A stretch of 21,310 nucleotides of DNA from a virus, in the IMG/VR virus record IMGVR_UViG_3300010430_000521, positions 1-21,310 of that record. The stretch is one strand, 5' to 3'. Shown here piece by piece: positions 1-12,209 of the stretch. The notes under the pieces were generated by a model. The model did no database searches, was not told where the DNA came from, and was given only the letters and a program-made list of their open reading frames with translations. Both the position numbers and the translations under genes were made by a program. Position 1 is the stretch's first letter. The number at the start of each line of letters is the position of its first letter.

Positions 1-1264
1 CTGGATTTGTCGCTACTGTGGAATTGGCGATGTTCATTTTGTTGATAATTCTAGTTACATTGGAATTGTTTTTTAGATGTTTTTGAATCTGGTTCAATTC
101 AGCTTGGCGATTGTTATTTTGGGCTTGTTTAATAGCAATATGACCTTTGGGGATAATGGCCAGACCATTTTCGCGTGCTGTTTTCAGGTGAAGCCTTTGT
201 TCATTTTTTAAAGCTGCTTCTGCAAAGTTATTAACAGCTTCTGATACTGGACTCATAAGCTGGCCTACAACAAGTAGCGAAGCAAGAACTTTACTTAAGT
301 TTGAGCTGGAGGCTTTATCTAGTAGGCCGATGATTACTTCTAAGGAACCAATATTTATGTATCTAACAGAGATTTCATATTCAAGAGGGGGATTATATGC
401 GTTGTTTTTTAAAACAAATTTAATTCGGTCTAAGTTGGCTTCTTCCGTATTAAGTAAGAAAAAAACGTTGGAGTAGCTGAGGTGCAGTGCTCCTAAAAAG
501 AGAGAGAGGTCTCGAGGAGTCCACGGTGTATGATCTTTGAAATGAATTTTTAGCAAATTTGTACTGTGCTGATGTGTAGACTCCGTTTTTTTGTTTTTTT
601 TAGTAGCTTGTTTTTTATAAAAATTCCGTTCGTCCTGAAATATGCAGTTCGAAATTTGTTTTTCGTTTAATTGGTTCGTTAAATTGTTTAGCTGATTTCT
701 TGAGCTAAATAATGTTTGCTCAAAGTAAGCACCAGAGAAATCTGTTGCAGATATGATTGCATCTTTAAAATTAACAAATTTAAGTTTTGAACTGCGGAAG
801 TCTGAATGGCTTATGTCAGCTCTGTAAAACACAGTGTTTTGTAATTGTGCTTCCTGAAGATTGGTTCCGTCGAGTGTCGTGTCAATTAGGCTTGAGCCAC
901 CAAGGTCTGCGCCTCTCAGATTAGAAAAGCTGAGGAATGCACGGTCCATTATTGTGTTTCTTAAAATTGTGTATTGAAGGTTTGCTTTTTGTAAATCAGC
1001 TCGTTCTAAATCGGCCCCGCTTAAATTTGCCTTTTGTAGAAAAGCTCCGTGAAGGATGGCTTCGTGGAGATTGGCTTCTTGCAGGTGAGTTGCTTGGAGT
1101 TCTGCCCCGCAGAGATTTGCCCTAAAAAAGTTGGCATGTCTTAAGTCGAGTTGTTGTAAGTTTGCAAAGTCAAGATTTATTGGTTCGTGTGGATGTTTTG
1201 AGCGAAATTCGTTCCATGCTTTAACATCAGTCTTAAGGAGCTCAATCATCTCATCTTTATTCAT
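1..1264 (-). CDS. Pentapeptide-repeat protein, 3' end beyond the left edge
   Basis: I translated this open frame from the minus strand; it starts at the ATG at 1262-1264 and is still open after 421 codons at the window edge. The N-terminus (MNKDEMIELLKTDVKAW...) is a short helical leader of a kind common in pentapeptide proteins. Then come A(N/D)LxxA-type repeats from about residue 30 to 185 (FRANL, LSGADL, LEGADL-like units), which should fold as a right-handed quadrilateral beta-helix. A Lys/Thr-rich linker (about 210-235) leads to an alpha/beta region (about 240-345) with a hydrophobic helix near 335-350, and then a polar Asn/Gln-rich tail. No transmembrane segment is seen at the N-terminus, unlike the pair at 6292-8674. 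A GAGG Shine-Dalgarno sequence lies 8 nt before the ATG. The gene is AT-rich compared with the phage genes and opposes them, which suggests cargo. The C-terminal domain is not recognised, so function is unknown. Confidence 0.88.
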   Translation of the reverse strand, partial: MNKDEMIELLKTDVKAWNEFRSKHPHEPINLDFANLQQLDLRHANFFRANLCGAELQATHLQEANLHEAILHGAFLQKANLSGADLERADLQKANLQYTILRNTIMDRAFLSFSNLRGADLGGSSLIDTTLDGTNLQEAQLQNTVFYRADISHSDFRSSKLKFVNFKDAIISATDFSGAYFEQTLFSSRNQLNNLTNQLNEKQISNCIFQDERNFYKKQATKKNKKTESTHQHSTNLLKIHFKDHTPWTPRDLSLFLGALHLSYSNVFFLLNTEEANLDRIKFVLKNNAYNPPLEYEISVRYINIGSLEVIIGLLDKASSSNLSKVLASLLVVGQLMSPVSEAVNNFAEAALKNEQRLHLKTARENGLAIIPKGHIAIKQAQNNNRQAELNQIQKHLKNNSNVTRIINKMNIANSTVATNP

Positions 1265-1555
1265 AGCCAACCTCAAATTTGAAAAATAATAATTATGAGG
1301 TTGTTCTATAAGAGGAAGCAAATTGTCAAGAATTAACCACGTAACGCACTAGCATTGCTCACGCATAGCTAGTGCATAAGTCGGGCAGGTCCGGAATTTT
1401 TGTGAATTCCGGGGCGTCGCCGAAAATTTTTCAGGGCATGCCCTGTTTTTTTTGAACCTTTTAAACATGTTATGAATGAAAATTTGCTTGGGTAATGCTT
1501 GAGTATTGCCAATGCAATAAATCCGCAAAGCTGAAAAATTTTTAAGGAGTGCGGT
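1265..1555. other. Hairpin-rich divergent intergenic region
   Basis: This 291-base stretch separates the minus-strand pentapeptide gene from the plus-strand replication gene, so it should hold promoters in both directions. It contains four successive inverted repeats: 1346-1353 with 1368-1375 (8 bp perfect), 1391-1398 with 1405-1412 (8 bp perfect, 6-nt loop), 1432-1445 (perfect palindrome followed by T8) and 1491-1498 with 1503-1510 (8 bp including two G-T pairs, 4-nt loop). For the minus gene a TTGACA lies at 1324-1329, but no well-spaced TATAAT accompanies it. I see no credible coding frame here. Confidence 0.6.
1432..1453 (+). terminator. Terminator-like hairpin with T8 tract
   Basis: The perfect palindrome CAGGGCATGCCCTG is followed at once by eight T residues on the + strand. 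The usable stem is about 5 GC-rich base pairs with a CATG loop, which is short for an intrinsic terminator. No plus-strand gene is seen upstream within the window, so it might insulate the replication gene from read-through or belong to a regulatory leader. Confidence 0.45.
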
Positions 1556-3370: not shown

Positions 3371-3964
3371 ATGGAAAAAAAGAATCCGAATCATCCCGAA
3401 AAGGGAAGCAAGCTTAAGGTTGATCCGATCACTTCGCTGAAGGACATTGCGAATCTGAAAAAGCTGCTTGAAGACAATCCGCGCGATCTGGCTTTGTTCG
3501 TTCTGGGGATCAACACCAATCTCCGCGCCATTGATCTGGTCCAGATTGAGGCCGAACAGTTCATCCATGCCAAAGCCGGTGACGAGCTGGTGCTTGAAGA
3601 GCAGAAGACAGCCAAGGGTCGCCGGATCACCCTGAATGAGACTGTCATCAAGGCTGTGCGTCCTTGGGCGGTGCAGTGCCGGGACGAGGAACGGATTTTC
3701 CTTTTTACGGGCAGGAACGGCGGCCATATGGCTCCGAACTACGTCAACAAGCTGGTCAAGAAGTGGTGCGAGAAAATCAATTTGAAGGGGCAATACGGCT
3801 CTCATACGTTGCGGAAAACATTCGGCTATCACCAGCGGGTAACATTCGGTGTGGATATCCCGACCTTGATGGAAATTTTTAATCACTCCAGCCAGAAGCA
3901 GACCCTTGATTACCTGTGCGTCCAGCCTGAGGAAATCAAGGATGTGTACATGAATGCATTATGA
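3371..3964 (+). CDS. Short tyrosine recombinase (catalytic domain only)
   Basis: This 197-aa protein carries the full catalytic set of tyrosine site-specific recombinases: Arg52 (TNLRAIDL), Lys79 or Lys82 (EQKTAKGRR), His145 and Arg148 (SHTLRK), His172 (NHSS) and nucleophile Tyr181 (LDYLCV). It lacks the N-terminal core-binding/SAM-like domain of normal phage integrases (usually 300-400 aa), so it is a catalytic-domain-only form. The start follows AAAAGGAG with an 8-nt gap. Its stop overlaps the terminase start in ATGA (3961-3964), so the two are translationally coupled. That placement inside the packaging operon is unlike an integrase beside attP and suggests a late role such as resolution of DNA or processing of packaging substrates. 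Being the phage integrase remains possible. Confidence 0.9.
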   Translation: MEKKNPNHPEKGSKLKVDPITSLKDIANLKKLLEDNPRDLALFVLGINTNLRAIDLVQIEAEQFIHAKAGDELVLEEQKTAKGRRITLNETVIKAVRPWAVQCRDEERIFLFTGRNGGHMAPNYVNKLVKKWCEKINLKGQYGSHTLRKTFGYHQRVTFGVDIPTLMEIFNHSSQKQTLDYLCVQPEEIKDVYMNAL

Positions 3965-5433
3965 GTAAATCGTTGAAAGCAAAAGGCTTGATGGGGAATC
4001 TGCTCATGAATTTGAAGGAGCAGGTTCCACAGGCTGAATCTCAGTACATCGGCACTGGGAAGCCTGATATGCCGCTGAAAGAGTTCATCCGCAATGCATG
4101 GCACGTTATCGAGCCGGGGCGGACCTTTATTGACGGCTGGCATATCGGGGCCATTGTGGAGCATCTGGAGGCGGTCAGTACCGGGGAGATTTCAAGGCTG
4201 CTGATCAATATGCCGCCTCGCCACATGAAGTCGCTGTCCGTGTCAGTCTGCTGGCCGGCTTGGGAATGGACCTTCAATCCGTGGATTCAATTTTTCTTCA
4301 GCTCCTATTCGGCCATGCTTTCAACGCGAGACAATATGAAGACCCGTGAGATCGTGACTTCGCCCTGGTATCAGGAAGCATGGCCTCATGTGCAGCTCAA
4401 GCGGGACCAGAACGCCAAGGACAAGTTTGAAAACAAGGCCGGGGGCTTCCGCTTTTCCTCATCTGTCGGCGGCAGGGCGACAGGTGAAGGCGGGGACCGC
4501 ATAGTAGCTGATGACCCCCACAACATGTCCGAGGTCAATTCTGATGCCAAGCGTAAGGAAGTGCTGGATTGGTGGGACAACACCATGCAGACCCGTCTCA
4601 ATGATCCCAAGACCGGGGCTTTCGTAGTTGTTATGCAGCGCGGCCACCAGCAGGATCTGAGCGGCCATATTCTGGAGAAGGGCGGTTATACCCATCTCTG
4701 CTTGCCGGCACGGTACGAGGGTAACAAGTTCCATACGGTACTGGGTTTCGAAGATCCCCGTGAAGAGGAAGGGCAGCTGCTCTGGCCGGAACGTTTTGAC
4801 GAGGAAACCCTGACTCATATTGAAAATTCTTTCTCTTCACCTACTGAGGCCGCAGGGCAGCTCCAGCAGCGTCCGGTTCCAAAGGGCGGGGCAATCTTTC
4901 AGGTGGACTGGTTCAAGCGGTATACCAAGCTTCCCAAATTCAACCGCATTGTCGAGCACTGGGACACGGCCCAGAAGAAGAATGCCAATGCCGCTTATTC
5001 GGTAGGGCAGCTCTGGGGCGAGGCCTACAACGGCTACTACCTGCTGGATCTGATCCGTAAGAAGATGGAGTACCCGGAGCTGAAGCGCACAATTAAAAGG
5101 CGGTACGCGATTCACAAGGCCTCCGCGATCGTAATTGAGGACAAGTCCAGCGGGATCAGCGTTATTCAGGATTTGCAGGACGAAACCAAGCTCCCGGTCG
5201 TGCCTTGGGCAGTGACCGGGGGCGATAAGGAAAACAGGGCCAATGCGGTAGCCGATACGATCGAGGGCGGCAATGTCTGGTTGCCAGAGTCCGCTGAGTG
5301 GCTGGATGTCTTTCTGGATGAGGTAGAGCACTTTCCCGGCTCCAAATACAAGGATCAGGTGGATGTGATGACGCAGGCCTTGGAATATTTTCTCAGAAGG
5401 GGCGGCTTAACTGAAGGCCGCGACATGTCTTAG
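3961..5433 (+). CDS. terL: Terminase large subunit
   Basis: The 490-aa protein is the ATP-driven DNA-packaging motor with a headful/cos-type nuclease. A Walker A-like loop is NMPPRHMKS (about 83-91), Walker B is RIVADDP (180-186), and FVVVMQRGHQQD (221-232) is the coupling region. The C-terminal nuclease shows EHWDTA (Asp335), VIEDKSSG (Glu393/Asp394) and KYKDQVDVM (Asp465/Asp468), the acidic metal-binding set of the RNase H-like domain. Length is normal for the family. The start overlaps the recombinase stop (ATGA) and lacks a strong ribosome-binding site, so coupling is likely. It should act at the portal vertex with the protein encoded at 10293. Confidence 0.95.
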   Translation: MSKSLKAKGLMGNLLMNLKEQVPQAESQYIGTGKPDMPLKEFIRNAWHVIEPGRTFIDGWHIGAIVEHLEAVSTGEISRLLINMPPRHMKSLSVSVCWPAWEWTFNPWIQFFFSSYSAMLSTRDNMKTREIVTSPWYQEAWPHVQLKRDQNAKDKFENKAGGFRFSSSVGGRATGEGGDRIVADDPHNMSEVNSDAKRKEVLDWWDNTMQTRLNDPKTGAFVVVMQRGHQQDLSGHILEKGGYTHLCLPARYEGNKFHTVLGFEDPREEEGQLLWPERFDEETLTHIENSFSSPTEAAGQLQQRPVPKGGAIFQVDWFKRYTKLPKFNRIVEHWDTAQKKNANAAYSVGQLWGEAYNGYYLLDLIRKKMEYPELKRTIKRRYAIHKASAIVIEDKSSGISVIQDLQDETKLPVVPWAVTGGDKENRANAVADTIEGGNVWLPESAEWLDVFLDEVEHFPGSKYKDQVDVMTQALEYFLRRGGLTEGRDMS

Positions 5434-5442
5434 GGGTGAATT

Positions 5443-6096
5443 ATGAGACTGATTGAAAAACTGAAAGTTGTGACCTCGCCCATGACCGGGCAGCGCAGCC
5501 TGAAAGACCCGGTGACCGGCATTGTGTACCGTAGGGTGTCAGGCGGCGTGGCATGGACGTATGACGTAAGGCCGGGAGGGATCACCGTGTTGGCAGAGCA
5601 CAAGGATCCCGTTCATGGAACTGACCAGCACCGGGTGGATGTGGTGGTGGAATTTATGGATGAAGACACCGAAACCCTCTGCCGCGAAATGGCGGCTTTG
5701 CAGGATGCGCTTAAAGTGGATATCTGGCGTACTCCGTTGACTCATGCTGCTACGCGGCTGGTGCATATGTTCAACGATCGGCGGCATAGGCTGCGCGTAC
5801 CGACCTTGGATCTGGCTTCGCCTCCGGCTATGAACGGTAGCCGCACTTTCCGCGATTATGACCGCTTGGTGGATCGACGGACCCGGAATATCAAGACCCT
5901 CTATTTCGGGGAATCACAGGCCGTGCTGGAGTACAACACCCTCGGGCGTGATGATCTGGGCCGCAAGCTGGAGGAATATCCGGTAGTGGCTTCTATGCTC
6001 TATGCGCTGGCCGGGCTGGATCTGGAAAGTGCTGGGGCGGGATTTGTGGATTCTGTGCGTCCATCCGGGCTTACCAATTCAGCAGGGGGGTATTGA
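5443..6096 (+). CDS. Unrecognised phage protein downstream of terL
   Basis: A 217-aa soluble protein of unknown function, with no signal peptide or membrane segment. It starts MRLIEKLKVVTSPMTGQRSL, behind a GGGGTGA ribosome-binding site. The N-terminal half is beta-rich (WTYDVRPGGITVLAEHK, HRVDVVVEFMDED) and the middle is basic (HMFNDRRHRLRVPTLDL, DYDRLVDRRTRN). It sits 9 bases after terL and runs directly into the helix-turn-helix gene (1-base gap), so it belongs to the packaging operon. Codon use matches the virion genes. A role in packaging or head assembly is a guess from position. Confidence 0.85.
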   Translation: MRLIEKLKVVTSPMTGQRSLKDPVTGIVYRRVSGGVAWTYDVRPGGITVLAEHKDPVHGTDQHRVDVVVEFMDEDTETLCREMAALQDALKVDIWRTPLTHAATRLVHMFNDRRHRLRVPTLDLASPPAMNGSRTFRDYDRLVDRRTRNIKTLYFGESQAVLEYNTLGRDDLGRKLEEYPVVASMLYALAGLDLESAGAGFVDSVRPSGLTNSAGGY

Positions 6097-6097
6097 T

Positions 6098-6295
6098 ATG
6101 GTGGTGCGGCCTGTTGAGATTGTTACGGGTTTAGAGAACATCGGAAGGATTTTCGGAGTAGGGCGCAACACCGTCCGCGCTTGGGCGCAGAAGGAAGGTT
6201 GCCCTATCCGCCGTGTTGAGGGGAAGTACACAGCGGAGAAGGCTGAGCTTTGGGAGTGGGTTAAGGAGTATGCTGGTGGGGAGGTTGGGTGCTAG
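6098..6295 (+). CDS. Small helix-turn-helix DNA-binding protein
   Basis: A 65-aa protein beginning MVVRPVEIVTGLENIGRIF. The segment GLENIGRIFGVGRNTVRAWA (about 11-30) is a clear helix-turn-helix, followed by a wing-like stretch (CPIRRVEGKYTAEKAELWEW) as in excisionase/MerR-like or Nu1-type terminase DNA-binding domains. The start at 6098 is chosen because GGGGGG precedes it by 7 nt and the gene upstream ends at 6096; the frame is open further upstream but there overlaps that gene. Its stop overlaps that of the opposing pentapeptide gene in CTAG (6292-6295). It could be a terminase accessory, excisionase or regulator of the neighbouring cargo. A degenerate copy of its 3' half occurs at about 7390-7434. 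Confidence 0.82.
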   Translation: MVVRPVEIVTGLENIGRIFGVGRNTVRAWAQKEGCPIRRVEGKYTAEKAELWEWVKEYAGGEVGC

Positions 6296-7350
6296 TTTTC
6301 ATAGGGTGCTTCGTACTTCCAGAATTTTTCGTGGTACCAATCTGGTTTTATGAATAAATGAGGGTGGGTTTTTCTGAGTTCTTTTTCTATTCTGGCTGGA
6401 ATTTTGGCTTTGTAAAGATTTTTAGAGTCAGCGAGATTAACATTTTTGAGTTTTGTCCTTGTAAAGTCCGCTCCAGTAAGTTTCGCTCCAGTAAGTTTCG
6501 CTCCAGTAAGGTCCGCTCCAGTAAGTTTCGCTCCAGTAAGGTCCGCTCCAGTAAGGTCCGCTCCAGTAAGGTTCGCTCTACGAAAGTAAGTTTCTAAAAG
6601 GTTGCCCCCTGAAAGATCAGCCCTTGAAAGATCGGCATTTTCAAAGAAGGCATCTACAAGATAGGCTCTTGAAAGATTGGCTTCCAAGAGACGAGCTCTA
6701 GAAAAGTCTGCCCCTGAAATGAGGGCCCCTGAAAGGTCGGCCCTTGAAAGGTTGACTCTTGAAAGGAAGGCGTTTGCAAGGAAGGTTCCTACAAGATTGG
6801 CCCCAGTGAGGTTCGCCGATTCAAGGTCGGCTTTAAAAAGGTCTGCTCCTGAAAGGTTCGCTAAGGATAGATTGCATTCTCTTAGAGTGTTTTTGTATGT
6901 TTCGATTGTGCTAACGAGCATACGTTGTCCAGTCTTGTAGTGCTCGTTATAAAAAAGAGAGTAAAATGTGTGCCAGAATCGTAGTAAATCTGTGTTGTGT
7001 GGAACTTTATTCTCTTGGATATTGTGTAGATTAGCGCACGCTATATGTCTATATCCTGTAGCCATCTGTGTTTGAAATGTAGCTATTTGCATTTCGTAGG
7101 AGCTAGTAGCTCGCTCATACCTATTTGAAGCAATCCCAAATATTATAAAATAGACACTGATAGCCCACGGTACAAAGCTACTAGGTTTCACATACTCGTC
7201 TGCATTCAGCACAGCATTGCTGGGTGGGAATATTTTTTCAACAACAAGACGTACCCCTGAGTAGTGGTATAGACAGTAAAATGGTCTTGGTGAGTTCCAG
7301 ATCAGGATCAGGATTATGATTCCTATGTGGGATGTGATGTATGCTTCCAT
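6292..7350 (-). CDS. Membrane-anchored pentapeptide-repeat protein A (LTGAD-rich)
   Basis: 352 aa from the ATG at 7348-7350; the frame is open upstream to 7509, but alignment with its paralog (METKDWIILSIT...) supports this start ([12 protein letters not shown]...). TM segments lie at about 5-18 and 59-75, with a charged segment between them ([18 protein letters not shown]). A helical stretch (85-155) contains [12 protein letters not shown] and [14 protein letters not shown]. Pentapeptide repeats fill about 159-320 (NLSGADL, NLTGANL, then [10 protein letters not shown]), ending in a short charged tail. The predicted form is a beta-helix held at the membrane. No Shine-Dalgarno sequence is seen, only an AT-rich leader. 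It lies 31 bases after the paralog's stop on the same strand, so the two are probably one operon. It is AT-rich and opposes the phage genes. The function is not recognised; exclusion, immunity or lysogenic conversion are possibilities. Confidence 0.9.
6466..6570. repeat. 15-bp coding minisatellite (7 units)
   Basis: Seven consecutive 15-bp units share the core CGCTCCAGTAAG and differ only in the first three bases (GTC or TTT), at 6466, 6481, 6496, 6511, 6526, 6541 and 6556. Read on the minus strand they encode LTGAD or LTGAK pentapeptides. Degenerate units continue to about 6600. Near identity at DNA level points to recent slippage or unequal exchange, and any change in copy number keeps the reading frame. 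Confidence 0.95.
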
Positions 7351-7381
7351 GAAAAATATGTTTATCTGATTGTTTTTGAAA

Positions 7382-8674
7382 TCACAATGCACCGTCCGCG
7401 TCTGGCGCAGAAGGCTGGGCTTTGGGAGTGGGGTAATGATAGGCCCAAGGGAGAGGAGGGATGTCAAGTTCTGGTGCATAAGTTTTGACATCAGACCATA
7501 GATGTTCAAGTTTTGTTTTAAAGGATTGCTGTGGATCTTTGAATAGTTCTGGTTTTAGTCTTCTGAGAATTGTTTCAACTGGTGCTGGGAGTTTGGTTGC
7601 AGTCAATTCATGCGCATATAGTAAACTATTAACCATGTTTTCTGTATTATTAGTAGAGCCAGTATAAGTTTCTGTGAATGTCGCATTGCGCATGTCTGAA
7701 AATATAATTGTTGCATTGTCCAACATTGGTGAGATAAAATTTGTGTTTTTAAAGTCTGAGTGTATTGCAATTGTGTTGAAGAACATTGTATCTTCAAGTG
7801 TGGAATTGTAAAAAGAGGTGCCAGTTAAAACTGAGTCACTGAAGTTACACGTTTTTATGTGTGAGTTTGAGAAACTTGATTTGGATATCGAGGAATTATT
7901 AAAATTTGTTGAGTCAATATGTAAGTTGTTTAATGAAGAATTATAAATATTTGTGCTTGTTAATGTTGCTATGTGTATGCTTGTTTTTTTAAATTCTGTA
8001 TTGTATATTTCGCTTTTGCTGAAGTCTGTGCAGGTTAAATATGCATTGCTAAAGTCAACATTGTCAATTTTACTATTTTTTAAGTTTGCTTTGTATAAAT
8101 TTGAATTTTGCAAGTGAACATTATCAATGACGCAACTATTTAAATTGGCGTTGTTCAAATCTATATTTGGTAATTTAATACTCTTAAACTGAGCATTAGA
8201 AAGCCCCTTTTTGTATGCCTGTAGTGTTTGAATGATCGTATTTTCACCTTCTTTATATTTACCTTGTACAAAGAGAGACATTATCGTGTCCCAAAAAAGT
8301 AATATTTCTGCTTTAGGTGGGACTTTGTTTTTTTGAATGCTAGTCAGGTTTGCACAAGCTTGAGCTCTAAAACTAGTAGACATCTGAGTTTGCCATGCAG
8401 CAATTTGCATTTCATATAAGTTTACAGCTCGGTCATATCTGGCTGATGCTATGCTGAATATTGCTACGTAAATGCTTATCGTCCATAATATGAATGTGCT
8501 CGGTTTGCGAAAGTTTTCTTTTTGTTCAGTTGGTGGATGTAGTTTTTCAAAAATTGCTCTCAGGCCAGAATAGTTGTAAAAGAAATAGTATGTTCTTGGG
8601 AGTTTGTGATAGAGATAAATGAAAGTTGGGATTAATATTGTGATGCTTAAGATTATCCAGTCTTTAGTTTCCAT
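7382..8674 (-). CDS. Membrane-anchored pentapeptide-repeat protein B (Ser/Asn-rich)
   Basis: A 430-aa paralog of the gene downstream. The N-terminal module aligns throughout: TM1 about 6-22, SGLRAIFEKLHPP, TM2 about 61-77 (FILWTISIYVAIFSIAS), RYDRAVNLYEMQIAAWQTQM, ACANLTSIQKNKVPPKAEILLFWDTI. The repeat domain (about 160-355) keeps pentapeptide spacing but is Asn/Ser/Thr-rich and non-canonical (LNNANLNSCVI, FSNSHIKTCNF), unlike the LTGAD repeats of protein A. The C-terminus (VKTYAPELDIPPLPW, then a Pro/Ala-rich tail) runs antisense over a relic of the helix-turn-helix gene. The start has AAGGA with an 8-nt gap, and a TATAAT box lies about 46 bases upstream. It is strongly AT-rich relative to the phage operon. 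Function unknown. Confidence 0.92.
   Translation of the reverse strand: METKDWIILSITILIPTFIYLYHKLPRTYYFFYNYSGLRAIFEKLHPPTEQKENFRKPSTFILWTISIYVAIFSIASARYDRAVNLYEMQIAAWQTQMSTSFRAQACANLTSIQKNKVPPKAEILLFWDTIMSLFVQGKYKEGENTIIQTLQAYKKGLSNAQFKSIKLPNIDLNNANLNSCVIDNVHLQNSNLYKANLKNSKIDNVDFSNAYLTCTDFSKSEIYNTEFKKTSIHIATLTSTNIYNSSLNNLHIDSTNFNNSSISKSSFSNSHIKTCNFSDSVLTGTSFYNSTLEDTMFFNTIAIHSDFKNTNFISPMLDNATIIFSDMRNATFTETYTGSTNNTENMVNSLLYAHELTATKLPAPVETILRRLKPELFKDPQQSFKTKLEHLWSDVKTYAPELDIPPLPWAYHYPTPKAQPSAPDADGAL
7390..7434 (+). pseudogene. Relic of the 65-aa HTH gene
   Basis: The plus-strand sequence here matches the 3' half of the gene at 6098-6295. ACCGTCCGCG equals 6170-6179, GGCGCAGAAGG equals 6184-6194, and CTGGGCTTTGGGAGTGGG matches CTGAGCTTTGGGAGTGGG at 6243-6260. 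A 48-bp block (6195-6242) is missing, bounded in the intact gene by AGAAGG at 6189-6194 and 6237-6242, which is the expected product of deletion between short direct repeats. A one-base loss near 7400 also shifts the frame. The relic lies inside the antisense 3' end of pentapeptide gene B. Confidence 0.8.
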
Positions 8675-9267: not shown

Positions 9268-9716
9268 TGCGCAAACTTCCACCTCTTGAAGCCACACTCC
9301 TGCGCCGTCCATATACCGATCAGGGAACTATCGGTGTGCTGACCATTTCCGAAGTCCAGTACCAGAGCTATTCCATGGAACTCCCGTGGCGCGAGAACCA
9401 GACTGATATTTCCTGCGTTCCGGTGGACACCTATCTTCTCTTTCCCCGCTGGTCCAATCACTGGAACAGCTTTGTTTATCAATTCAAAGATGTGCCGGAC
9501 CGTTCAGCCGTTCAGATTCACTGGGGCAACGTGGCCGGCGATAAGTCTCTGGGTTTCAAATCCCATTCTCTCGGTTGCGTCCTGCTCGGTTCCTGCGTCT
9601 GCGAGATCTGGGGGCAGCTGGCCGTGGGCAATTCAAAACGAACTTTCCGCAAATTCCTAAAGGCCACACTGGGCCGCAATCTTTTGCTCGACATCAGGGA
9701 GGCGCATCATGGCTGA
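9267..9716 (+). CDS. DUF5675-like phage protein
   Basis: About 149 aa from the ATG at 9267; a GTG at 9264, overlapping the previous stop in GTGA, would add one Met. The pattern fits DUF5675: an early TIGVLTI strand, the motif MELPWRENQTDISCVPVDTY (about 37-56), NSFVYQFKDVPDRSAVQIHWGN (about 67-88), and SLGCVLLGSC (101-110), a conserved His...Gly-Cys arrangement that recalls L,D-transpeptidase or peptidase active sites. Family members are often found in phage lysis regions, but I know of no settled activity. It overlaps the next gene by 8 bases (ATGGCTGA). A cell-wall-directed role is inferred from motif shape and position. Confidence 0.87.
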   Translation: MRKLPPLEATLLRRPYTDQGTIGVLTISEVQYQSYSMELPWRENQTDISCVPVDTYLLFPRWSNHWNSFVYQFKDVPDRSAVQIHWGNVAGDKSLGFKSHSLGCVLLGSCVCEIWGQLAVGNSKRTFRKFLKATLGRNLLLDIREAHHG

Positions 9717-10296
9717 TGCTTCGATGTTTGATATTATCGGTTCCTCATTGCTCGGTATCGGGACCGGGGGCGTGGCTACAATTTTTCAGAACGTCTTTGG
9801 TGGAATTTCCAGCTGGATCAGCGAATGGCAGAAGCGCAAGACTTTGGCCCTGATGCACCAGCAGGAAATGGTCATGGCCGACAAGGAAATTGAAAGGCTA
9901 CGCGCTGAAGGTGATGTGAAGGTTCAGCAGGCCCGCGAAGACCGGGCCATGACTGAAACGATCATTGACGGCCAGAATTATCAGGCTTCGCTGGCGCATG
10001 ACGTGGCTACTTATTCACGAGGCAGAGAGGCCACTTGGGCAGATTTCCTGCTTGTGGTGGCAGATTTTGTGCGTGGCATTACCCGGCCTACTATGACAGC
10101 TTTTCTGTGCTGGGTAACTTGGTCCACCTATCAGCATTTCACTGGCTATCTTTCCGATAACAATGTGCTGGTTGATCCGAACACAGCCAATGAAATGGTC
10201 CGCTATATCGTGACCAATACAGTTTTCATGTCCAGTGCTGCTGTTGGCTGGTGGTTTTCATCCAGACCGCGCAATGCTGCGAAGGCGGCAGCATGA
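9709..10296 (+). CDS. Putative 3TM holin-like protein
   Basis: A 195-aa protein with a hydrophobic Gly-rich N-terminal segment (about 7-35), a highly charged helical middle (QKRKTLALMH through DVATYSRGREA, about 41-108), and hydrophobic segments at about 111-142 and 165-184. The pattern 'RGITRPTMTAFLCWVTW ... WWFSSRPRN' matches my picture of the 3TM-type phage holins, which form inner-membrane lesions so that lysin can reach the wall. It starts within the previous gene (8-base overlap) and its stop overlaps the portal start (ATGA). No classical endolysin is visible in the window, so the DUF5675-like neighbour or a gene outside must supply that activity. Confidence 0.85.
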   Translation: MADASMFDIIGSSLLGIGTGGVATIFQNVFGGISSWISEWQKRKTLALMHQQEMVMADKEIERLRAEGDVKVQQAREDRAMTETIIDGQNYQASLAHDVATYSRGREATWADFLLVVADFVRGITRPTMTAFLCWVTWSTYQHFTGYLSDNNVLVDPNTANEMVRYIVTNTVFMSSAAVGWWFSSRPRNAAKAAA

Positions 10297-12209
10297 GTCA
10301 GGATCTCGGTGTTTTCATAAAGACGCTTTTCAGTGAAGCGGAGTCTGCCCGTTCTTCCAAGGAAGAAGAATGGATGAAGGACTATTTGCAGACCAAAAGC
10401 GAATATGAGCAGGACGATCTCAAGAAGATCAAGCGTTCCAAGATGTACGTGCCGGCTACTCGGGTTAAGCTGAATACTGTGCTTACTCAGGTTATGGATT
10501 TCCTTTTTCCTGCTTCCGATGAACGCAATTGGGATCTCAAGCCTTCGCCCAGACCGGAGCTGCATCCTTCGGTTGTCGCTCATTACCAGCAGCAGGCCGC
10601 CATGCAGGGTGCGGAGCTTTCCACGGAACAGCTTGAAAAGCTGCTGGATAAAAAGGCTAAGGATTCCTGTTCCGCCATGTGCGAAGAGATCTCCGACCAG
10701 CTGGTGGGCGGCTCCGGTCGCAAATCATACCGCTCGGTGTGTAAGTCCGTGGCAGAACAGAAGCTTAAGTACGGTACAGGAATTTTGAAGGGGCCGCTGG
10801 TCCGTGAAGAATTTCGTGAAGCATACGCCGTTACCGAAGACGGTAGCTGGAAGTTGCAGAAAACTGAATCCACAGAGCTGCGTCCATTTTATGAAGATGT
10901 CTCAGTTTGGAATGCATACCCTGACGCCAATGCGACTCGCCTTGGGGATTGCGAATATATTTTTCAGGACCATATCTACAACCGCCAGCAAGTCTTGGAT
11001 CTAAAGGAGTTCCCCGGTTTTAAGGAAGACGTTATCCGTGCCTACCTGCTGGATAATAAGGATGGCGATCTGGACTCATACAAGGCCCTGAAGCTGCAAC
11101 AGAAAATCGGTAGCGGTGAAACCCGCAAGATGGATAAGCGTTACCGGGTCTATGAGTTCTGGGGAACTTTGACCGGAGATCAGCTTGCATCCGTGGGCAT
11201 CCAGATTCCAGACGAAGATCTTTCCGAGATCTTCCCGGCTAATGTCTGGATGTTGGGCGATAAGGTCATCAAGGCGGTTATCAATCCCCTTGAGGGCGCG
11301 ACCATTCCTTATCAGTTTGATTACTTCGTGGAAGATGAAGATTCAATCTGGGGGGATGGCCTGCCCAAGCTGCTGCGTCATCCTCAGAAGGCTTTGAACT
11401 CGGCTATGCGCATGCTGCTGGATAATGCCTCTGTTTCATGCGGACCGCAGGTTGCGGCTAACATGAGCGCGTTTACTCAGGATGAAGATCCGCGCGACAT
11501 CTATGCTTTCAAGTTCTGGCCTTTCCGTTCTGTGGAAGACATGAACAAAGCTCTCAAATTTTTCTCTGTCCCTTCCTACACCAACGAGCTCATGGCTCTG
11601 GTCCGGGTCTTTAACGACATGGTGGACGATATGTCTGTGCCGCGCTTTATGGGCGGTGACGGTTCCCAGATGCGCGGAGCCGGCAAGACTGCCCGTGGGC
11701 TTTCCATGCTCATTGGAGCAGCGCACCAGATTCTCAAGGATCTGGTCAAATCTCATGATGAGAACATTACCCGTCCGTTCTTCAAGAAAATGTATTTCTG
11801 GAACATGCAGTTCAATCCCCGGCAGGACATCAAGGGTGACTTTGAAGTCATTGCTACCGGAACTTCCGTGCTCATGGCCAAGGAAGTGCAGCTTGAACGC
11901 ATGCAGACCATTGCGGCCATCACCGACAATCCCCGTTTTGAAGGCTGGATCGATGACGAAAAGCTGATCAAGGAAATCTGTAAAAACCTTGATTTGCCTG
12001 ACGGTGTGCTGCGTTCAGCACGAGAAAAGCAAAGCTGGGAACGTGAACGTCTGGCCGAAACAGCACGGGCAAATATTCAAGCATTGGTTGAAGAATTGAA
12101 AAATAAGGGTGTGGATGTTCAGCAACATTTGCTGTCCATGCTCCAGCAACAGGCCGGTGCATTGATGCCGGAAGGAGGTCCGCATGAAGCTCGTGGACAT
12201 GCGGCATAA
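10293..12209 (+). CDS. Portal protein
   Basis: 638 aa from the ATG at 10293, which overlaps the preceding stop in ATGA; the frame is open a further 14 codons upstream, but those lie inside the holin-like gene. The size and pattern fit podovirus-type portals: an N-terminal helical region with a Lys/Glu-rich segment, KMYVPATRVKLNTVLTQVMD, VWNAYPDANATRLGDCEYIF, the 'DSIWGDGLPKLLRHPQ' motif near residue 350, and a coiled-coil Gln-rich C-terminus (SWERERLAETARANIQ, QQHLLSMLQQQ). It forms the dodecameric ring through which TerL pumps DNA and to which adaptor proteins attach. The last 26 bases overlap the next gene. Confidence 0.92.
   Translation: MSQDLGVFIKTLFSEAESARSSKEEEWMKDYLQTKSEYEQDDLKKIKRSKMYVPATRVKLNTVLTQVMDFLFPASDERNWDLKPSPRPELHPSVVAHYQQQAAMQGAELSTEQLEKLLDKKAKDSCSAMCEEISDQLVGGSGRKSYRSVCKSVAEQKLKYGTGILKGPLVREEFREAYAVTEDGSWKLQKTESTELRPFYEDVSVWNAYPDANATRLGDCEYIFQDHIYNRQQVLDLKEFPGFKEDVIRAYLLDNKDGDLDSYKALKLQQKIGSGETRKMDKRYRVYEFWGTLTGDQLASVGIQIPDEDLSEIFPANVWMLGDKVIKAVINPLEGATIPYQFDYFVEDEDSIWGDGLPKLLRHPQKALNSAMRMLLDNASVSCGPQVAANMSAFTQDEDPRDIYAFKFWPFRSVEDMNKALKFFSVPSYTNELMALVRVFNDMVDDMSVPRFMGGDGSQMRGAGKTARGLSMLIGAAHQILKDLVKSHDENITRPFFKKMYFWNMQFNPRQDIKGDFEVIATGTSVLMAKEVQLERMQTIAAITDNPRFEGWIDDEKLIKEICKNLDLPDGVLRSAREKQSWERERLAETARANIQALVEELKNKGVDVQQHLLSMLQQQAGALMPEGGPHEARGHAA

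What the first reader, a model, noticed from the sequence alone, without database searches (positions are those of the whole stretch)
7382..7440. Decayed copy of the HTH gene lies inside the antisense 3' end of pentapeptide gene B
Bases about 7390-7434 match the 3' half of the intact HTH gene (6170-6260) with a 48-bp deletion between two AGAAGG repeats and a one-base frameshift. The last ~20 codons of pentapeptide gene B are read from the opposite strand of this relic. So an [HTH gene / opposing pentapeptide gene] unit seems to have been duplicated, one HTH copy decayed, and its antisense strand was taken over as new protein sequence.
Basis: seen in the sequence. Interest (0 to 1): 0.66.

Follow-up and report, generated by a model that had tools for sequence, protein, structure and literature searches.

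The report
Phage protein tail from antisense gene remnant
In a phage genome the last 27 or so amino acids of one pentapeptide-repeat protein are read from the opposite strand of a broken copy of a neighbouring DNA-binding-protein gene, most likely left behind when two related phages recombined; it is a clear small example of known ways in which phage genes are shuffled and proteins gain new ends.

Summary
A 61.7% GC island at 7388-7468, set in 22-33% GC DNA, is a remnant of the 3' part of the HTH gene (6098-6295). 45 of 50 aligned bases match, with a 48-bp deletion between GCGCAGAAGG and GCGGAGAAGG and a 1-bp loss. The score is about 10 sd above shuffles. The last 27 codons of pentapeptide gene B lie antisense to it.

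The relative L004 has the single-copy layout: one HTH gene and one convergent pentapeptide gene with stop codons overlapping on TTAG. In the window, HTH and gene A overlap on CTAG. At the matching spot in the relic (TGTCAAG) both stops are gone, so B runs on to 7382.

The relic differs from the HTH gene by 10%, but A and B differ by 42% in nucleotides over their non-repeat N-termini, near saturation at fourfold sites. They therefore cannot share one duplication date. The better reading is recombination between two related phages carrying alternative cassettes, HTH/A and HTH'/B, at the same site, then decay and stop loss. Whether the tail does anything is unknown; it is predicted unstructured. 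Interesting, but ordinary in kind.

The parts
6098..6295 (+). intact HTH gene (65 aa, HTH_17-like), third gene of a terL - 217-aa protein - HTH block
   Evidence: ORF; weak Pfam HTH_17 match E 8e-4, below the curated cut-off; 81% aa ortholog in L004 and a weak 31% relative in L005 at the same place
6292..7350 (-). pentapeptide gene A (352 aa), convergent with HTH; the two stop codons overlap on CTAG 6292-6295
   Evidence: ORF; Pfam Pentapeptide E 1.5e-41; L004 pair overlaps the same way on TTAG
6185..6194 (+). left direct repeat GCGCAGAAGG of the 48-bp deletion, as it stands in the intact gene
6233..6242 (+). right direct repeat GCGGAGAAGG of the 48-bp deletion, as it stands in the intact gene
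7351..7387 (.). AT-rich gap (21.6% GC) between the start of A and the relic; holds B's stop (7382-7384) and the probable left recombination joint
   Evidence: not clearly alike to the L004 upstream region (P 0.39)
7388..7468 (+). HTH relic: GC island (61.7%); 7390-7439 is 90% identical to the HTH gene over 50 aligned bases, 7440-7468 a degraded HTH 3' end including the lost stop (TGTCAAG, 7462-7468)
7382..8674 (-). pentapeptide gene B (430 aa), upstream of A on the same strand; N-terminal hydrophobic helices, pentapeptide solenoid, helix, then tail
   Evidence: ORF; Pfam Pentapeptide_4 E 4e-19; model; Foldseek hits to pentapeptide solenoids
7385..7465 (-). codons 404-430 of B (DIPPLPWAYHYPTPKAQPSAPDADGAL), antisense to the relic
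   Evidence: codon coordinates; predicted unstructured: pLDDT below 50 for residues 411-430

Best explanation
The stretch is the scar of a recombination between two related phages (or prophages) that carried different pentapeptide genes in the same slot, each convergent with the same HTH gene. One parent had HTH/A, the other HTH'/B. A joint between the DNA just upstream of A and the middle of HTH' placed B, trailing the 3' part of HTH', upstream of A, giving HTH - A - (HTH' relic) - B with A and B on the same strand. The spare HTH' then decayed: 48 bp were lost between two near-identical 10-mers (slippage type), one G was lost, and the shared stop site was destroyed. Because the stops of HTH and its convergent partner overlap, that change removed B's stop too, and B now reads 27 codons into the antisense strand of the relic until 7382. 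Shown: the relic, the deletion and its repeats, the overlapping stops in both intact pairs, the antisense frame, the mismatch in age. Inferred: the donor phage, the order of events, the exact joint, the form of B's former stop. Not shown: that the tail is translated, selected or useful; on present evidence it is a tolerated passenger.
For: Homology far above chance. GC island whose limits match the relic. The single-copy convergent unit in L004 with stops overlapping on TTAG, against CTAG in the window. In the relic register the stop tetramer reads TGTCAAG, with no stop in either gene's frame. Age conflict: relic vs HTH 5/50 sites and 2/16 third positions; A vs B 42.5% of N-terminal sites and 16/25 fourfold sites. 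The relic groups with the window HTH rather than L004's (9 shared sites vs 2), so its split is recent, while A is no closer to B than to the L004 gene. The slot is variable in content: L004 has two other small genes next to its pentapeptide gene, L005 has none there. Phage recombination on short, diverged homology is well documented (PMC3945230).
Against: No phage carrying HTH/B alone was found in viral contigs or genome contigs. The age argument rests on 50 aligned bases. The left joint cannot be placed exactly and shows no homology, so that side must have been illegitimate or has since been erased. A long B C-terminus before the relic (residues 380-403) has no counterpart to fix where B once stopped. 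No expression data.
Confidence: 0.62

Rival explanations
1. One reading: the whole HTH/pentapeptide unit was duplicated in tandem in this phage lineage, one HTH copy decayed, and the two pentapeptide genes diverged.
For: The tandem layout HTH-A-relic-B is what it predicts; A and B are homologous along their whole length, 35% aa; L004 shows the single unit.
Against: A and B are far too diverged for the age of the relic, and no closer to each other than A is to L004's gene. Rescue needs either very fast divergence of both non-repeat N-termini or gene conversion of HTH' by HTH shortly before it decayed.
Confidence: 0.22
2. B came in independently and a short piece of the HTH gene was later copied to its 3' end by template switching or another ectopic copying event.
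For: The relic covers only the 3' part of the HTH gene and lacks the start; its 5' edge shows no homology to anything.
Against: It would be a coincidence that the copied piece sits at the 3' end of B in the same convergent orientation, ending about where the HTH stop overlaps the partner's stop, as in both intact pairs.
Confidence: 0.13
3. The match is chance or a conserved short motif rather than a relic.
For: The matched part is only about 50 bases.
Against: Score 23 against a shuffle maximum of 13, z about 10, GC island in AT-rich DNA, E 4.7e-8 by blastn in the genome search.
Confidence: 0.01
4. The relic is kept because the B-A transcript carries it as an antisense RNA against HTH mRNA (about 35 nt, 89% complementary).
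For: B and A lie on the strand opposite to HTH, so the B-A transcript is complementary to HTH mRNA at the relic.
Against: No Rfam match, promoter-like sites at chance level; transcription of A through the overlapping stops would already give a perfectly complementary antisense RNA, so the relic adds little.
Confidence: 0.02

Closest known systems
Stop-codon-mutation (SCM) origin of gene overlaps in prokaryotes (PMC2174442)
   Same: Loss of a stop between neighbouring genes and read-through to the next stop; the convergent 4-base stop overlaps CTAG and TTAG are two of the tetramers listed there.
   Different: Here the neighbour is itself dead, so the result is a longer protein over a relic rather than two overlapping live genes.
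Recent de novo C-terminal extensions by stop loss, Saccharomyces and Drosophila (PMC4494051)
   Same: Short new C-terminus made from formerly non-coding sequence after loss of a stop.
   Different: Here, in a phage, and the source is the antisense strand of a recognisable gene relic rather than ordinary non-coding sequence; polymorphism of the stop could not be shown.
Relaxed homologous recombination and mosaicism among temperate phages (PMC3945230)
   Same: Exchange of cassettes between related phages on limited, diverged homology; leftovers of genes at the joints.
   Different: No donor was found and the recombinase is unknown; at one end no homology remains.

Membership tests
Pentapeptide repeat proteins (Pfam PF00805 / PF13599) | tandem A(D/N)LXX repeats scoring over the curated cut-off | tested here: met
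   A: PF00805 139.9 bits, B: PF00805 66.5 and PF13599 68.8 bits, cut-offs 20.2 and 38
Pentapeptide repeat proteins (Pfam PF00805 / PF13599) | right-handed four-sided beta solenoid | tested here: met
   B residues about 160-335 modelled as regular short strands, pLDDT mostly 85-95; best Foldseek hits are designed and natural pentapeptide solenoids, E to 3e-11
Qnr / MfpA gyrase-protecting pentapeptide proteins | match over the curated NCBIfam equivalog cut-off | tested here: not met
   Best Qnr score 29.4 bits for B and 61.5 for A, cut-offs 240-500
HTH_17 / excisionase-like helix-turn-helix | Pfam HTH_17 over the curated cut-off | tested here: not met
   20.0 bits against a cut-off of 27, E 8e-4; family likely but below threshold
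Stop-loss C-terminal extension | ancestor or relative with an earlier stop at the extension point | tested here: inconclusive
   A and L004 homologs stop where their HTH gene stops, but no close B homolog without the tail was found
Stop-loss C-terminal extension | extension derives from identifiable formerly non-coding sequence | tested here: met
   Relic of the HTH gene in antisense
Stop-loss C-terminal extension | extended protein is made | not testable with these tools
   no expression data held

The most novel reading that the evidence does not exclude
The antisense-derived tail is a functional new C-terminus: stop loss at a stop site shared by two convergent genes turns the decay of one gene directly into new protein sequence for its partner, and phages that shuffle convergent HTH/pentapeptide cassettes make such tails repeatedly.
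Probability: 0.06. Interest if true: 0.62.

Novelty: new member of a known kind. Interest (0 to 1): 0.36.

Why it matters
It is a readable example of two processes at one spot: cassette stacking by recombination at a shared flanking gene, and birth of a protein C-terminus by antisense read-through into a dying gene. Overlapping stops of convergent genes mean that one small mutation can unstop both genes, which predicts that such tails should be found wherever convergent pairs are duplicated or recombined. The wider lesson for genome reading is that tandem paralogs with a relic between them need not come from a local duplication: the age of the relic and of the paralogs should be compared first.

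Tried and rejected
Chance match: rejected. Assembly artefact: unlikely, since an independent contig has it. Selection on the tail: untestable, as none of the 27 differences between the two contigs falls between 4966 and 9496. Further relatives: A, B, HTH, the 217-aa protein and alignments of these found only L003, L004 and L005 in viral contigs. Two scans of genome contigs gave none. tblastn against phages and plasmids gave only repeat-level matches for B, and nothing for HTH in phages. The terL profile scan reached 80 distant phages (44% identity or less); no HTH, 217-aa-protein or A/B hits to them appeared in the tblastn table for those queries (that printout was cut near its end, in the rows for the L004 pentapeptide gene). 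RNA families: none. Promoter and terminator scans: at chance level. Defence families for A, B and neighbours: none convincing. A frameshift as the way B passed its old stop (there is a TGA in another frame at 7466-7464) was considered; it cannot be told from a substitution or insertion at the stop itself.

Full report
SETTING. The window is a 21,310-base virus record of a tailed phage. A large terminase gene (3961-5433; Terminase_6C, E 4e-19) is followed by a 217-aa protein gene (5443-6096) and a 65-aa HTH gene (6098-6295), all on the + strand. Facing them on the - strand lie two pentapeptide-repeat genes, B (8674 to 7382) and then A (7350 to 6292). B is upstream of A with 31 bases between them, so they could be one transcript.

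OBSERVATION. The relic is real. The repeat finder, not told where to look, returned both of its pieces. The best alignment scores 23, against a maximum of 13 in 1000 dinucleotide shuffles and 11 for the next best place in the window. A gapped alignment lies about 10 sd above shuffles. The 48-bp deletion and its repeats are exact: GCGCAGAAGG at 6185 and GCGGAGAAGG at 6233 in the intact gene, one GCGCAGAAGG at 7405 in the relic. A single G is lost just before it. Past the high-identity part, weaker likeness runs to the HTH stop (P = 0.011).

Composition agrees. 7388-7468 is 61.7% GC, against 57.1% in the HTH gene, 32.8% in the rest of B and 21.6% in the gap next to A. A second contig, L003, 99.76% identical over 11 kb, has the same relic.

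ANATOMY OF THE STOPS. In the intact pair, HTH ends in TAG at 6293-6295 and A ends in the reverse complement of 6292-6294, so the two stops overlap on CTAG. In the relative L004 (terminase 89% identical) there is one HTH gene (6412-6621) and one convergent pentapeptide gene (6618-7595), overlapping on TTAG. Both tetramers are among those listed for convergent prokaryotic gene pairs in PMC2174442. At the matching place in the relic the sequence is TGTCAAG (7462-7468) and neither frame stops. B therefore continues through codons 404-430 (7465 to 7385) on the antisense strand of the relic and stops at 7382-7384. The structure model, built on three sequences only, gives a confident pentapeptide solenoid and pLDDT below 50 for residues 411-430. 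The solenoid matches known pentapeptide proteins.

HISTORY. If the unit had been duplicated whole, the relic and B would have parted from HTH and A at the same time. They did not. Relic and HTH differ at 5 of 50 aligned bases and 2 of 16 third positions. A and B differ at 42.5% of nucleotides in the non-repeat N-terminal part and at 16 of 25 fourfold sites there (24 of 42 over the whole genes), as saturated as window and L004 are at the HTH gene (16 of 25). Fisher tests give P = 2.5e-6 for all sites, and 0.0015 and 0.003 for third positions against fourfold sites. The relic shares 9 bases with the window HTH against L004, and 2 (in one codon) with L004 against the window. In proteins, A to L004 is 49.7% and A to B 45.6% over the N-terminal 165 residues, and 44% and 35% over the whole. 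So the HTH copies split recently and the pentapeptide genes long ago.

The simplest account is that two related phages carried different pentapeptide genes in the same slot beside the same HTH gene, and that recombination put both into one genome with part of the donor HTH between them. Phage recombinases act on short and diverged homology, and mosaic exchange with prophages is common (PMC3945230). The slot is indeed variable: L004 has two other small genes next to its pentapeptide gene and L005 has no pentapeptide gene there, while a possible distant HTH relative (31% identity, profile probability only 24%) keeps its place in L005.

LIMITS. The age argument rests on 50 bases. No HTH'/B donor was found. 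With three pentapeptide sequences and no outgroup a rooted tree cannot be made. Nothing shows that the tail is made or useful, and the two near-identical contigs do not differ in it.

VERDICT. Observation confirmed. The antisense origin of B's last 27 or so codons is well supported. The duplication story is replaced, at about 0.6 confidence, by recombinational joining of two alternative cassettes followed by decay and stop loss. Both ingredients are known: stop-loss extensions (PMC2174442; PMC4494051) and phage mosaicism. The combination at one spot is a clean but ordinary case.

Noticed in passing
3371-3964 (+): A short (197 aa) tyrosine-recombinase-family gene (Phage_integrase E 1e-19, PHROG integrase E 1e-40) sits inside the packaging block, its end overlapping the start of the terminase gene by 4 bases.
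   Followed up: no
2-1321 (-), complete in L003 1998-3449: A third pentapeptide gene (483 aa in L003) with a different C-terminal half runs off the left end of the window, near the replication genes and away from A and B.
   Followed up: partly
L004 7638-8015 and 8036-8443 (-): In the relative, two unrelated small AT-rich genes (about 30% GC) lie next to the pentapeptide gene where the window has B; the site looks like a slot for accessory genes.
   Followed up: partly
7350-7509 (-): The reading frame of A stays open upstream through the relic and into the B region (possible TTG start at 7509), and no clear ribosome-binding site precedes the ATG of A.
   Followed up: no
9497-9656 and 10901-10937: The 27 differences between the window and L003 are clustered (10 in the 150-aa DUF5675 gene, 7 in the gene at 10251-12209), and all those inside genes are synonymous, as after local exchange with a sister phage.
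   Followed up: no
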